From Planctomycetota bacterium (GTDB lineage: Bacteria; Planctomycetota; PLA2), in contig JAJFFH010000037.1 in NCBI GenBank assembly GCA_021776735.1, positions 186,001 through 250,000 of the forward strand: 64,000 nt of DNA. Reading direction: 5' to 3'. The notes under the pieces are model-generated. The model was not told where the DNA came from. It saw only the letters and a program-made list of their open reading frames with translations, and ran no database searches. This document shows, in pieces, positions 4,445 through 62,673 of the stretch (its first letter is position 1; each line of letters opens with the position of its first letter). The translations under genes were made by a program, and so were the position numbers.

Positions 4445-5833
4445 ATGGGGAAAAACGGGTCTAGGCGGCGGTCTGTTCGGAACTCGGCCGCCCGGGCCTT
4501 GACGGGGCTGGTTCTCGCGGGCGCGATCTTGGGCGTAGGTCACCACGCATCCGCGGCCCCGGATCCGGTCAAAGCCTCCGCGGCATCACCGCGACGCTCG
4601 AACAAGGTCTACGCCGGACGTCTCGGCTGGGTATCGCCGGGCCGCGCGCGCAAGGCGGGCTACTTCGAGTACGAGGACCGCTGGCTGCCGTCGAAGTTCA
4701 AGCGCAAGCTCGCGGGTTGGCGCAAGAAGGACGCACGCACAAAGGACTGGCGCGACCGCTACAAGGCCAAATCCAGGCACTACAAGATCGAGACCACGCT
4801 GCCGCGCGCGGTGCTCGAAATCGACGTGAAGCCGTTTCTGGACGAACTGTACGAGACCTACAGCGACGTGTTTCGCCGCGACTTCGGCCTGACCGGCCGC
4901 GGTGCCCACAACAAGCTCATCCGCATCTTCCACGGCTACGACGAGTACGCGTTGCGGGCGAAAGGCCCGGGCATCCTGACCCCGCGCACGAACCCCGGGT
5001 TCATCCTCAACGGCATCGAACTCGTCGTGTTCTACGAGGCGACCGACCCGGCGAACTTCTACAACACCGTCTTTCACGAAGGCGCTCACCAGTTCGTGGC
5101 CGCGCTCTTGCCCGGCGCCGACCTGCCGCTCTGGCTCGACGAGGCCCTGGCAACGTATTTCGAGGGCTGCCGCTACTCGCGCGTTACGGGAAACATCGAC
5201 GTCGGCCACCTGCCGCCCGGGCGTCTCGCGAAAGCACAGAGGGCACTCAGGGAAGTAAAGCTGACGGACGGCGATTCACTTCCGGAGCGGATGTTCATGA
5301 ACGTTCCGCGCGAGCGTTTTCACGCGGTCGAGTACAGCCTCGCGTGGAGCTTTGTTTACTACCTGACGCACGCGGAAAAGGGCAAGTACCGTCGCGGCTT
5401 CACCAAGTTTCTGAGAGCCATGAACGGCGCCGGCAAGCGTCCGGTAAGCGAGGTCTTTCGCCGCGCGACCGGGCGTTCCCTGAAAGATCTACAAAGGGGC
5501 TGGCGTGCGTACATCCTCGGGCTGGAACTGCCGCGGGCACCGAAGTGGGTGCGCCTGCGCGTCGAGGACGACCCGGATGACGTCGCGCTGCAATCCGAGG
5601 ATCTCGTCTGGAGCATCGACGGCGAACGGATGGACAACCCCGACGACTTCGTGCAATGGCTGGAGCGCCGCCCGGCCAACGCGCCGACCGAATGGATCGT
5701 CGTACGTCGCATGAAGACGGGCACTCCCATCGGTTGGCGCCCAAAGTTCATCCACGCCACGGTCTCGCCTGCGGCCGCAGCAAGAATCAGTTGCCTCGGC
5801 ACCCTCAGCCGCCATCACACACTGATCGACTAG
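4445..5833 (+). CDS. DUF1570-like exported putative metallopeptidase
   Basis: A 462-residue protein with a signal-like N-terminus (LTGLVLAGAILGVGHHASA). The central part has HEGAHQFVAALLP followed about 20 residues later by WLDEALATYFEGC. This arrangement (HExxH-like with Gly for Leu, then an E in LDEALA) is seen in DUF1570/MA-clan peptidases. The C-terminal 90 residues (VRLRVEDDPDDVALQSEDLVWSIDGERMDNPDDFVQWL) look like a divergent PDZ domain. One copy of the dispersed 12-mer lies inside it, read as KLTDGDSL. It stands apart from its neighbours and a hairpin follows its stop. Proteolysis is inferred, not shown. Confidence 0.75.
   Translation: MGKNGSRRRSVRNSAARALTGLVLAGAILGVGHHASAAPDPVKASAASPRRSNKVYAGRLGWVSPGRARKAGYFEYEDRWLPSKFKRKLAGWRKKDARTKDWRDRYKAKSRHYKIETTLPRAVLEIDVKPFLDELYETYSDVFRRDFGLTGRGAHNKLIRIFHGYDEYALRAKGPGILTPRTNPGFILNGIELVVFYEATDPANFYNTVFHEGAHQFVAALLPGADLPLWLDEALATYFEGCRYSRVTGNIDVGHLPPGRLAKAQRALREVKLTDGDSLPERMFMNVPRERFHAVEYSLAWSFVYYLTHAEKGKYRRGFTKFLRAMNGAGKRPVSEVFRRATGRSLKDLQRGWRAYILGLELPRAPKWVRLRVEDDPDDVALQSEDLVWSIDGERMDNPDDFVQWLERRPANAPTEWIVVRRMKTGTPIGWRPKFIHATVSPAAAARISCLGTLSRHHTLID
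5264..5275 (+). repeat. dispersed motif ACGGACGGCGAT
   Basis: Exact copy preceded by AAGCTG; in the DUF1570 gene, read sense as TDGD. Confidence 0.9.
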
Positions 5834-5858
5834 GCCGCCCAAACCCGGCCCGGCGGCC
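5833..5858 (+). terminator. hairpin after DUF1570 gene
   Basis: A GGCCGCC / GGCGGCC inverted repeat with a 12-nt loop begins at the last base of the preceding stop codon. There is no clear U-run, so this is a probable but unproven terminator. Confidence 0.45.
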
Positions 5859-5905
5859 TGCGCGGAGATCGGGTACGATCGGTGCAATCTGAGGAGGTTG
5901 TACTG

Positions 5906-60850: not shown

Positions 60851-60862
60851 ACGGACGGCGAT
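60851..60862 (+). repeat. dispersed motif ACGGACGGCGAT
   Basis: Exact copy in the 237-bp gap between kinase 4 and the AAA+ activator; preceded by AAGCCT. Nothing else is seen in that gap. Confidence 0.9.
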
Positions 60863-60975
60863 GCCTGCTCGCCGACTCTTTTGGCGTGACATCCGACCCT
60901 CGCGTCCGTCGTGTGGTCATCGTCCACGCCAACGGGAAGCAGGCGTCCGGGCAGCCCTCCGAACGCAAGACACTG

Positions 60976-62673
60976 CTAGATCCCGTACTCGTCGATCTTC
61001 TTTTTTAGCGTTGGGTAGGTGATGCCCAGCAGCTTCGCGGCCTTCGTGCGGTTGCCGCCGGTGGCTTCCAGGGCGCGGGCGACCATCACTTTTTCCATTT
61101 CCTTTAACGTGCGGACATCGCCGTCCGTTTGCTTTGTCGTTGTGTTGGAGCTTCCCAGGCGGACTTCCAACGGTAGCTCACGGACGGCGATGCTTGCCTG
61201 GGTGGCGAACACCGCGCATCGTTCGCAAACGTTCTTGAGCTCGCGGACGTTACCCGGCCACTTGTACGCCTTGAGCTTGGCGAGCGCGTCCGGGGCGAAC
61301 TCGTGGTCGGGGAGGAAATGGCGCGCGAGCAGTTCGACGTCGTCTGTCCGGTCGCGCAGGGGCGGACAGCGCAGGGTTACGACCGACAGGCGGTAGAAGA
61401 GATCCTCGCGAAATCCTCGGTCGTGGAGATCGCGGTTGGTCGCCGCGACGATGCGGACATCGACGCGCGTCGGCTTGGTGGCGCCCAGGCGGTGGAATTC
61501 GCGGGTTTCGAGGACGCGCAACAGTTTAGCCTGCATGCCCGCGGCGAGTTCACCGACCTCGTCGAGAAACAGCGTGCCGCCGTGCGCCTGCTCGAAGCGG
61601 CCCGCCCGCGACTTGTCGGCGCCGGTGAACGCGCCTTTCTCGTGGCCGAACAGTTCCGCTTCAAGCAGGGTCTCGACGAACGCCGCGCAGTTGACCGCGA
61701 TGAACGGGCCTCGCGCGCGGCGACTGCCCGCATGCAGGGCGGCGGCGACGAGTTCCTTGCCCGTGCCCGTGTCGCCGGTGACGAGCACGGTGGCGTCCGT
61801 CGGGGCGACGCGCGCGATCTCACCGCGCAGGGTCCTCATCGGCGGGGACTCGCCGAGCAGGTCCTGGGCGGTCTGGGGGAGCGCGGGGGCTGCCTTCTGC
61901 GGACGCAACACCGGAGTCGTCGCGTTTGCCAGCGCCGTCAAGAGCGCAAGGTCGTCGCGCGTGAACGGCTCGCCGCGGACGCGATCGACGTAGAACGCGC
62001 CGTAGGCGCCGAGTGGCGCCGCGATCGCGGAGAGGACCTTTTCGGTCACGAGCGACGTGGCCTTGGGCAGGTCGAGGCGGGGCTCGCGGACCAAGACGCC
62101 TTCTCGTTTTCTCTTGACGTGCTCGACCACCGAGCGCGAAAACGTGCCGCGATTGGCGTCGGGCAGAATCAGCGCGGCGCGTGCCGGGGCAAAGATCTCT
62201 TCGAGACCGGCCACGAGATCCGCGCGCAGTTTCGACATCGGGCCCGCAAGGATTTCGTGAAAGCTGTAGACGGCGGCGAGGCGCGGCAGGCGTTCTTCGT
62301 CCGGCCCCCGCACCCCCCCACTTTCCGGTTCGATCGTTGACTCTATTTCCAGGGACCGGTCCTCGATCACGGTCGGCCGGTCGCCGGCGCCATCGGCAAC
62401 GAACACGAGCGTCAGGTTGCGGACGGTCAGCTCGTCGCCGGTGCGCAGGACGTGGCGCTCGACGCGGCGGCCGTTGACGTACAGGCCGTTGAGCGAACCG
62501 AGGTCGCACGCGACCCAGTCGTCGCCTTCGGGGCGCAGGGCGGCGTGGCGGCGGCTCGCGGCCTCGTCGTACACGCGTACGTCGGCGTCGTCCGCGCGGC
62601 CGATGACGACCTCGGCGTCGAAGCGGAACTCCTCCGCACTGGAACGGCCCCGCGCCACCTTGAGAAGAGGCAT
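60976..62673 (-). CDS. Sigma-54-dependent activator with FHA and GAF domains
   Basis: A 565-residue regulator. FHA domain at about 1-95 (IGRADDADVRVYDEAASRRH, GSLNGLYVNG), GAF-like region about 130-275, AAA+ sigma-54 activation domain about 290-500 (Walker A VTGDTGTGKE, GHEKGAFTGA contact loop, GGTLFLDEVGEL, RIVAATNRDL), then a Fis-type HTH (EATGGNRTKAAKLLGITYPTL). The FHA domain binds phosphothreonine, so control by the nearby kinases is plausible. Two dispersed 12-mers in opposite orientation lie in the linker between AAA+ and HTH (SIAVREL and KQTDGDV). A G-rich motif lies at 62305. Confidence 0.93.
   Translation of the reverse strand: MPLLKVARGRSSAEEFRFDAEVVIGRADDADVRVYDEAASRRHAALRPEGDDWVACDLGSLNGLYVNGRRVERHVLRTGDELTVRNLTLVFVADGAGDRPTVIEDRSLEIESTIEPESGGVRGPDEERLPRLAAVYSFHEILAGPMSKLRADLVAGLEEIFAPARAALILPDANRGTFSRSVVEHVKRKREGVLVREPRLDLPKATSLVTEKVLSAIAAPLGAYGAFYVDRVRGEPFTRDDLALLTALANATTPVLRPQKAAPALPQTAQDLLGESPPMRTLRGEIARVAPTDATVLVTGDTGTGKELVAAALHAGSRRARGPFIAVNCAAFVETLLEAELFGHEKGAFTGADKSRAGRFEQAHGGTLFLDEVGELAAGMQAKLLRVLETREFHRLGATKPTRVDVRIVAATNRDLHDRGFREDLFYRLSVVTLRCPPLRDRTDDVELLARHFLPDHEFAPDALAKLKAYKWPGNVRELKNVCERCAVFATQASIAVRELPLEVRLGSSNTTTKQTDGDVRTLKEMEKVMVARALEATGGNRTKAAKLLGITYPTLKKKIDEYGI
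61117..61128 (-). repeat. dispersed motif ACGGACGGCGAT
   Basis: Exact copy in the AAA+ activator gene, sense (KQTDGDV); preceded by AAGCAA. Confidence 0.9.
61180..61191 (+). repeat. dispersed motif ACGGACGGCGAT
   Basis: Exact copy in the AAA+ activator gene, antisense (SIAVREL), inverted and 51 bp from the previous copy. Confidence 0.9.

What the first reader, a model, noticed from the sequence alone, without database searches (positions are those of the whole stretch)
5264..61191. Undescribed dispersed 12-bp DNA motif ACGGACGGCGAT: 20 exact copies in 64 kb
Seen directly: exact copies at 5264, 8208, 11767, 12554, 18609, 22409, 23513, 26350, 30418, 31038, 34472, 34967, 39724, 42463, 49514, 53262, 53347, 60851, 61117 and 61180, 12 on plus and 8 on minus. 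At about 66% GC, a rough composition-only estimate is far below one copy. Density is about one per 3 kb. Established knowledge: DNA uptake sequences of Neisseria and Haemophilus, and HIP1 of cyanobacteria, are short, frequent, genome-wide, strand-mixed and found both in and between genes. Inference: this is an uptake, recombination or chromosome-organisation signal not known to me for planctomycetes.
Basis: partly seen in the sequence, partly recalled or inferred. Interest (0 to 1): 0.93.

Follow-up and report, generated by a model that had tools for sequence, protein, structure and literature searches.

The report
Putative DNA-uptake word in a planctomycete
A 12-letter DNA word occurs 1,520 times across one bacterium's genome, inside and between genes and on both strands, while the same letters read backwards occur once; it is likely a self-recognition tag for taking up DNA, a kind of system best known from two unrelated bacterial families.

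Summary
The window has 21 exact copies of ACGGACGGCGAT; the assembly has 1,520, 762 forward and 758 reverse, against 1 for the word read backwards. None of 98 relatives exceeds 11. In 447 kb an order-5 Markov model expects 1.3 and 140 are seen; synonymous shuffles of the genes give mean 3.0, maximum 9, against 83. The 12-mer is the core of a longer asymmetric element: AGC, 5 (sometimes 4) bases, GACGGCGAT, G, pyrimidines. Copies concentrate at gene 3' ends, form close inverted pairs and show no replication polarity, as in Haemophilus and Neisseria uptake sequences. The genome encodes ComEC, DprA and pilus ATPases. One feature I did not find described: copies in the same orientation avoid each other within about 1 kb (8 seen, 46.6 expected) while opposite copies do not; support is weaker in the second data set. 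Best reading: an uptake sequence that arose independently in a probable planctomycete, perhaps read directionally. Uptake is untested, no receptor is identified, and how copies arise is unsettled.

The parts
5264..5275 (+). core motif copy, in predicted ORF 4499-5833 (+)
8208..8219 (-). core motif copy, in predicted ORF 7725-8291 (-)
11767..11778 (+). core motif copy, intergenic
12554..12565 (-). core motif copy, intergenic between convergent predicted ORFs
22409..22420 (+). core motif copy, in predicted ORF 21120-23486 (+)
23513..23524 (+). core motif copy, intergenic, 26 bp after a stop codon
26350..26361 (+). core motif copy, in predicted ORF 26143-27057 (-)
30418..30429 (+). core motif copy, in predicted ORF 30043-31011 (+)
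31038..31049 (-). core motif copy, intergenic
34472..34483 (+). core motif copy, in predicted ORF 33101-35578 (-)
34967..34978 (-). core motif copy, in predicted ORF 33101-35578 (-)
39724..39735 (+). core motif copy, in predicted ORF 37777-40911 (-)
42463..42474 (-). core motif copy, in predicted ORF 42112-43131 (-)
49514..49525 (+). core motif copy, in predicted ORF 48028-50838 (-)
53262..53273 (+). core motif copy, intergenic; left arm of a +/- inverted pair with 53347
53347..53358 (-). core motif copy, in predicted ORF 53305-54195 (-); right arm of that pair
60851..60862 (+). core motif copy, intergenic
61117..61128 (-). core motif copy, in predicted ORF 60976-62673 (-); -/+ inverted pair with 61180
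61180..61191 (+). core motif copy, in predicted ORF 60976-62673 (-)
15553..15562 (-). variant copy, half core GGACGGCGAT in the 4-base-spacer form AGCCAAGGACGGCGATG
   Evidence: position converted to window coordinates
36271..36279 (-). variant copy, half core GACGGCGAT preceded by AGCTTTAC
   Evidence: position converted to window coordinates

Best explanation
ACGGACGGCGAT, present 1,520 times in this genome, is likely the core of a DNA uptake sequence: a tag that a type IV pilus receptor would bind on free DNA, so that DNA from the cell's own kind is predicted to be imported through ComEC and recombined. Shown: the count, the extended element (AGC, 4 or 5 bases, GACGGCGAT, G, pyrimidines, with weak purine tracts to about -25), its placement in genes on both strands and at gene 3' ends, the close inverted pairs, the even spacing, the avoidance of same-orientation neighbours within about 1 kb in the 20% of the genome examined, and the presence of ComEC, DprA and pilus-type genes. 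Inferred: that the tag is read by an uptake receptor; that copies spread because fragments carrying one enter cells more often and convert the chromosome (molecular drive); and that each copy is read directionally, so that a second copy in the same orientation on the same stretch adds nothing while one in the opposite orientation does.
For: Genome-wide excess with balanced strands. Excess in genes survives synonymous shuffling, 83 against mean 3.0 and maximum 9 of 200. 38 of 44 TDGD peptides and 23 of 24 IAVR peptides are spelled by the exact word, so selection or drive acts on DNA. Flanking preferences are alike in 160 intergenic and 164 coding copies. Sharp core: 324 exact copies against 110 over all 36 one-mismatch neighbours, 46 of these being one variant. 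Two-part structure: AGC at spacing 5 (262) or 4 (37) before GACGGCGAT, at most 12 at any other spacing from 0 to 12. Density per kb, computed: 2.3 between convergent genes, 1.4 between tandem genes, 0.45 between divergent genes, 0.15 in genes. Spacing evener than a class-preserving null: 111 against 69.6 neighbours at 2-4 kb; same orientation under 1 kb 8 against 46.6, 0 of 500 permutations as low. No link to GC skew and no orientation correlation beyond 2 kb. ComEC 798 aa with its lactamase domain, DprA, T2SSE and T2SSF proteins as in pilus ATPases and platform, 18 prepilin-type leaders. Known uptake sequences share the count range, inverted terminator pairs and lack of orientation bias (PMC1939737, PMC2397512, PMC7811141, PMC3630211; passages read).
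Against: No uptake experiment exists. No receptor was identified; the one strongly basic minor pilin has homologues at 49-76% identity, so it is not peculiar to this lineage. ComEC is in 15 of 17 genomes of the class, yet the 16 others have at most 6 copies of the word, so competence genes do not explain why only this genome has it. No analogous word was found in samples of relatives. No enrichment near the competence or pilus loci tested. The two motif-free stretches that I inspected, of nine longer than 14 kb, hold NADH-dehydrogenase-like and DnaK-, GAPDH- and PGK-like genes (recognised from recalled sequence starts, no domain search) and not obvious foreign DNA. Arrival by insertion is not excluded: of 27 coding sites that could be aligned, 17 lie within 3 residues of an alignment gap against 24% of control positions, and two of three sites studied closely adjoin insertions unique to this genome. 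The avoidance of same-orientation neighbours is significant in the second data set only under 300 bp (2 of 15; 300-1000 bp 4 of 13, P 0.27), and pairs under 1 kb lying in two different genes do not show it (4 of 7 same). PMC1939737 argues that known uptake sequences are not biased to sites downstream of genes and not very evenly spaced, so those two features are not agreed marks of the class.
Confidence: 0.66

Rival explanations
1. An intracellular chromosome-organisation signal: binding site of a nucleoid or segregation protein, placed every few kb.
For: Even spacing with an excess at 2-4 kb and an asymmetric long site with purine and pyrimidine tracts. Even spacing once led Karlin et al. to a similar idea for Haemophilus (as cited in PMC1939737).
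Against: No orientation correlation beyond 2 kb and no GC-skew link; half of the copies are in coding DNA, and no relative searched has the excess, which is odd for a core chromosome function.
Confidence: 0.14
2. A non-autonomous mobile repeat (REP or MITE-like) that inserted many times.
For: 17 of 27 aligned coding sites lie near alignment gaps against 24% of control positions. The lipoyl synthase site adjoins an insertion of 8 to 11 residues absent from all 59 aligned relatives, and the first coproporphyrinogen oxidase site adjoins an 8-residue insertion absent from all 29 relatives shown. Close inverted pairs are common.
Against: Gaps go both ways with lengths from 1 to 29 residues. In the second oxidase site the four motif codons align without a gap in all 29 relatives shown (9 of them have a 2-residue gap just downstream). 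Relatives P0122 and P0004 have motif-like residues without the insertions. Conservation fades into background by about -25 and +18 with no fixed outer boundary. Coding copies favour one reading frame (125 of 164).
Confidence: 0.09
3. A recombination hotspot signal of the Chi kind, read in one orientation by a RecBCD- or AddAB-like nuclease.
For: Same-orientation copies exclude each other nearby while opposite ones do not, as might follow for a polar signal.
Against: Chi and KOPS are skewed along the replication direction (recalled); here strands are balanced (762 and 758) and orientation is unrelated to local GC skew. A 12-bp core with 33 bits in all is far longer than Chi (recalled as 8 bp or less).
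Confidence: 0.08
4. A transcription terminator or 3' RNA element.
For: Enrichment after stop codons (104 of 160 intergenic copies have a same-strand gene upstream) and between convergent genes; the close inverted pairs have predicted RNA folding energies of -20 to -57 kcal/mol (no shuffled control).
Against: 164 of 324 copies lie inside predicted genes, 63 of them antisense; most copies are not in close pairs; no Rfam match in the window.
Confidence: 0.03

Closest known systems
DNA uptake sequence (DUS) of Neisseriaceae
   Same: Word of 10-12 bases, 943 to 3,236 copies in the passages read, inside and between genes, inverted pairs at gene ends, several dialects (PMC3630211, PMC2397512, passages read).
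   Different: Different word (DUS recalled as ATGCCGTCTGAA; only GCCGTC is shared with the reverse complement here); the AGC part with its spacer; no ComP identified; a different phylum (inferred); avoidance limited to same-orientation neighbours, which I did not compute for DUS.
Uptake signal sequence (USS) of Pasteurellaceae
   Different: Different word (USS core recalled as AAGTGCGGT); about a quarter of its density (one per 3.9 kb here, about one per kb in H. influenzae).
HIP1 of cyanobacteria (recalled)
   Same: Abundant dispersed short word.
   Different: HIP1 is a palindromic octamer; this is asymmetric and two-part.
Chi and KOPS (recalled)
   Same: Read in one orientation, dispersed.
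   Different: Those are skewed with replication; this is unrelated to GC skew.

Membership tests
DNA uptake sequences (functional class) | Short word over-represented genome-wide, hundreds to thousands of copies | tested here: met
   1,520 copies, control 1; Markov and codon-shuffle tests on 447 kb
DNA uptake sequences (functional class) | Both strands, genes and intergenic, no replication orientation bias | tested here: met
   origin of replication not located, GC skew used instead
DNA uptake sequences (functional class) | Close inverted pairs, often at gene ends | tested here: met
   21 neighbour pairs under 100 bp, all opposite; in 15 of the 21 the left copy is intergenic
DNA uptake sequences (functional class) | Competence machinery in the genome | tested here: met
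   ComEC, DprA, T2SSE and T2SSF proteins, prepilins; ComEC is also in relatives without the excess
DNA uptake sequences (functional class) | DNA carrying the word is taken up preferentially | not testable with these tools
   needs a cultured strain
DNA uptake sequences (functional class) | Pilin-type receptor that binds the word | tested here: inconclusive
   one basic minor pilin at L205:331-1020 (-), pI 10.4, of 14 leader proteins recovered, with 67 homologues besides itself; binding unknown
Neisseriaceae DUS dialects | One of the known DUS words | tested here: not met
   dominant word is ACGGACGGCGAT; DUS letters recalled
Pasteurellaceae USS | Hin- or Apl-type core | tested here: not met
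   core differs; USS letters recalled
HIP1 | Palindromic octamer | tested here: not met
   core and flanks are asymmetric
Chi / KOPS | Orientation skewed along replichores | tested here: not met
   no GC-skew link in 324 copies; replication origin not located
REP / MITE elements | Discrete inserted unit with empty sites | tested here: inconclusive
   gaps near 17 of 27 sites but both ways; of three sites studied closely two adjoin own-genome insertions and one does not

The most novel reading that the evidence does not exclude
A DNA uptake sequence system arose independently in a planctomycete, outside the two families best known for it, using a two-part 17-base recognition element with a 4- or 5-base spacer, and it is polar: each copy serves DNA on one side or one strand only, which is why copies in the same orientation exclude each other within about 1 kb while opposite copies ignore each other.
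Probability: 0.38. Interest if true: 0.92.

Novelty: new variant of a known kind. Interest (0 to 1): 0.82.

Why it matters
The uptake-sequence papers from which I read passages describe such signals in Neisseriaceae and Pasteurellaceae. An independent case in another phylum would let the open question of why these words accumulate (selfish drive or kin recognition) be tested a third time, and would suggest that natural transformation shapes genomes in a group with few genetic tools. The orientation-dependent spacing, if it holds genome-wide, gives a new handle on whether import is directional, and can be tested at once on existing Neisseria and Haemophilus genomes.

Tried and rejected
Structural RNA: no Rfam match in the window; four other loci gave one tRNA; rejected because coding copies occur on both strands. 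Peptide repeat: rejected, several frames and both strands are used and the codons are fixed. Replication-polar signal: no GC-skew link. Same word or half core in relatives: no excess among 98, 16 of the class or 391 drawn from the phylum with the 11-mer GACGGCGATGT, where this genome has 1,068 and the next highest 55, in a 12.3-Mb genome. Another dispersed word in relatives: none comparable in ten genomes of the class (13 to 280 kb each; the smallest samples, 13 to 40 kb, could miss a sparse word) or ten of the phylum (40 kb each), while two 40-kb samples of this genome gave the word at once (13 and 10 copies). G001 has a G-rich word, and a 12-mer seen 9 times in 100 kb of G003 did not come out as dispersed in 280 kb. 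Viral contigs: 11 stretches, one copy each. Motif deserts as foreign DNA: two of nine inspected, housekeeping-like operons and two giant lipoprotein-like genes with like starts, not phage by eye. Enrichment near competence genes: none at three loci. Deletion between direct repeats as cause of the same-orientation avoidance: not excluded, but the avoidance also occurs inside single genes (2 of 21 same), where deletion would damage the protein.

Limits: position statistics rest on 1,222,748 of 5,970,243 bases (contigs C1, C3, C20, C31, not a random choice) and on gene calls from my own codon-usage script, with no gene finder or transcripts. The avoidance was first noticed in 447 kb and then checked in the other 776 kb.
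Full report
What was checked. The window holds 21 exact copies of ACGGACGGCGAT, 13 plus and 8 minus. Dinucleotide shuffles give 0.03 on average. The window is bases 186001-250000 of contig C31 of a 5.97-Mb, 71-contig assembly, which holds 762 forward and 758 reverse copies, against 1 for the word read backwards. That is one copy per 3.9 kb.

Is it more than composition, codons or protein? 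In 447,027 bases with 140 copies, Markov models of order 1 to 6 expect 0.3 to 4.0; orders 7 and 8 expect 20 and 53, but those are trained on the motif itself. Shuffling synonymous codons within genes 200 times gives a mean of 3.0 and a maximum of 9, against 83 coding copies. The peptide TDGD occurs 44 times (2.3 expected) and 38 of these are spelled by the exact word; IAVR, its reverse-strand reading, occurs 24 times (4.6 expected), 23 by the exact word. The signal is therefore in the DNA.

Anatomy. With 140 and then 324 copies the flanks show a longer element: weak purine and A tracts from about -25, AGC at -5 to -3, two free bases, the 12-mer, then G, T or C, and pyrimidines to about +17. 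Total information is 33.8 bits in 160 intergenic and 33.1 in 164 coding copies. Searching the right half alone shows a two-part site: AGC stands 5 bases (262 cases) or 4 bases (37 cases) before GACGGCGAT, and at most 12 times at any other spacing from 0 to 12. The 4-base form is mostly AGCCAAGGACGGCGAT (24 of 37), a second spelling. The core is sharp: 324 exact copies against 110 for all 36 single-mismatch neighbours, 46 of them AAGGACGGCGAT.

Placement. In 1,222,748 bases (20% of the assembly) my ORF-based gene calls put 164 copies in genes and 160 between genes, although genes cover 89%. Dividing by the lengths gives 2.3 per kb between convergent genes, 1.4 between tandem genes, 0.45 between divergent genes and 0.15 in genes. 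Of the 160 intergenic copies, 104 have a same-strand gene upstream: copies gather at gene 3' ends and are sparse in divergent gaps. In genes, 101 are sense and 63 antisense, and 125 of 164 share one reading frame; positions along genes are flat. There is no link between orientation and local GC skew (P 0.72 to 0.97), and orientation is uncorrelated beyond 2 kb (129 of 269 same at 2-5 kb, 663 of 1323 at 5-20 kb).

Spacing. A permutation that keeps the number of copies per class of DNA and their strand bias (500 runs) shows neighbours at 2-4 kb in excess (111 against 69.6) and at 300-1500 bp in deficit (51 against 73.4). The deficit is in same-orientation neighbours: under 1 kb there are 8 against 46.6 expected (0 of 500 as low), while opposite neighbours number 54 against about 44. 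At 300-1500 bp same-orientation neighbours number 14 against 37.5, opposite ones 37 against 35.9. Counting all pairs under 1 kb, 10 of 65 are the same way round (P 1.2e-8): inside one gene 2 of 21, in one intergenic gap 0 of 14, one copy coding 3 of 18, both intergenic across a gene 1 of 5, but in two different genes 4 of 7, which shows no avoidance. The 64 variant copies, not used to find the effect, lie within 1 kb of exact copies 8 times in the same and 20 times in the opposite orientation. I noticed the effect in the first 447 kb (same 0 of 16 under 300 bp, 4 of 21 at 300-1000 bp) and then checked the other 776 kb: 2 of 15 (P 0.007) and 4 of 13 (P 0.27, not significant alone). An excess of +/- over -/+ pairs under 300 bp was seen only in the first set (14 to 2, against 6 to 7). 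The 21 neighbour pairs under 100 bp are all opposite; their predicted RNA folding energies are -20 to -57 kcal/mol, without a shuffled control.

Who else has it? Among 98 relatives none exceeds 11 copies, and the four of the same family have 2, 2, 3 and 0. The whole class held here is 17 genomes, and no other exceeds 6. With the 11-mer GACGGCGATGT, 391 other genomes drawn from the phylum reach at most 55 against 1,068 here. No comparable dispersed word appeared in samples of ten class genomes or ten phylum genomes; the smallest samples were 13 to 40 kb. In metagenome proteins there are traces of unsampled relatives that may share it. At both motif sites of the coproporphyrinogen oxidase, one homologue, P0122 (71% identical), carries residues the motif would encode (DGRRC and SIAVR), and none of the other 28 relatives shown does. 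In lipoyl synthase, P0004 and P0005 (82% identical, nearly the same sequence) read KDGDV where the motif variant would sit, and none of the other 57 aligned relatives does. I have not seen the DNA of those proteins, so this is inference.

How do copies arise? Results are mixed. Of 164 coding sites, 27 could be aligned (30% identity or more) to fetched relatives; 17 lie within 3 residues of a gap against 24% of control positions, and identity at sites is lower (0.28 against 0.41). Gaps go both ways and vary from 1 to 29 residues. In one aligned gene, relative G010 has the exact word at the matching place, but that stretch had been fetched because it held the word. Three sites were studied closely. 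The lipoyl synthase site adjoins an insertion of 8 to 11 residues absent from all 59 aligned relatives. The first oxidase site adjoins an 8-residue insertion absent from all 29 relatives shown, including P0122, which has the motif-like residues without it. At the second oxidase site the four motif codons align without a gap in all 29, though 9 relatives have a 2-residue gap just downstream. Sites therefore lie in variable loops; this fits tolerance of a spreading word, and also tract replacement or insertion. A study of Neisseria reports that many recent DUS look inserted by recombination rather than made by point mutation (PMC2397512, passages read).

Machinery. ComEC is intact at C20:335848-338244, 798 aa, with the channel and lactamase domains. 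DprA is on C62. C42 carries two T2SSE ATPases and a T2SSF platform protein, read as PilT, PilB and PilC from size and order. There are 18 prepilin-type leaders, and on C20 a PilM-like protein, a secretin and a GspG-like pseudopilin. Of the 14 leader proteins recovered by my pattern, one has a strongly basic mature domain (L205:331-1020, pI 10.4) and the rest lie between 4.1 and 6.1. It has 67 homologues besides itself at 49-76% identity or in fragments, so it is at most a weak candidate receptor. ComEC occurs in 15 of 17 class genomes, so having competence genes does not set this genome apart.

Comparison with known systems. Passages read give the yardsticks. [quoted passage not shown] influenzae) of copies in open reading frames, about 10% as inverted repeats; it also argues that they are not biased to sites downstream of genes and less evenly spaced than a compaction signal should be. 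PMC2397512: DUS as inverted-repeat terminators, and spacing that matches conversion tracts. PMC7811141 (passages, one section): about 1 kb average spacing, 23% within 100 bp of another, close opposite pairs as terminators, relatively even distribution. [quoted passage not shown] PMC2346458: one orientation is commoner in reading frames, and Pasteurellaceae copies lean to gene ends; here sense copies also prevail but positions within genes are flat. [quoted passage not shown] None of the passages read reports avoidance limited to same-orientation neighbours; I did not compute it on those genomes.

Literature on this case. No paper in the library holds both 'DNA uptake sequence' and 'planctomycet'. 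The word or its complement occurs in three papers whose titles concern the gene USP11 (listings only). A wider search listed 15 of 44 papers, none of the 15 with a planctomycete mention, and another 7 papers whose titles do not bear on this (listing only). The library lacks most subscription journals.

Verdict. The best reading is a DNA uptake sequence (0.66), with a chromosome-organisation site (0.14), a mobile repeat (0.09) and a Chi-like signal (0.08) as main rivals. The orientation rule is the newest element; directional reading of each copy is my inference from it.

Noticed in passing
own contigs C1, C3, C20, C31, dispersed: A second over-represented word, GGGGGCGGGGGC, occurs 76 times in 1.22 Mb; G-rich, possibly low-complexity, unexplained.
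   Followed up: no
G001 loci L072-L076 and L116-L121: A same-family genome has a G-rich near-palindromic word GGGGGCTCCGGGG, 16 copies in 176 kb.
   Followed up: no
C3:129558-141745 (L058-L059): Two predicted proteins of 1685 and 1681 residues with nearly the same first 40 residues (lipoprotein-like leaders) flank a 385-residue ORF; they lie in the longest motif-free stretch of the sample.
   Followed up: no
L205:1040-3673 (-), beside the basic minor pilin: An 877-residue predicted protein in the minor-pilin cluster with many lysine- and tyrosine-rich short repeats.
   Followed up: no
G230: The control word (GACGGCGATGT read backwards) occurs 24 times in a 2.1-Mb genome, well above the other genomes listed.
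   Followed up: no
L207, L213, L214, L215: In these IMG/VR loci the extended motif lies within about 300 bases of an end of the fetched stretch; three of the four are whole contigs.
   Followed up: no
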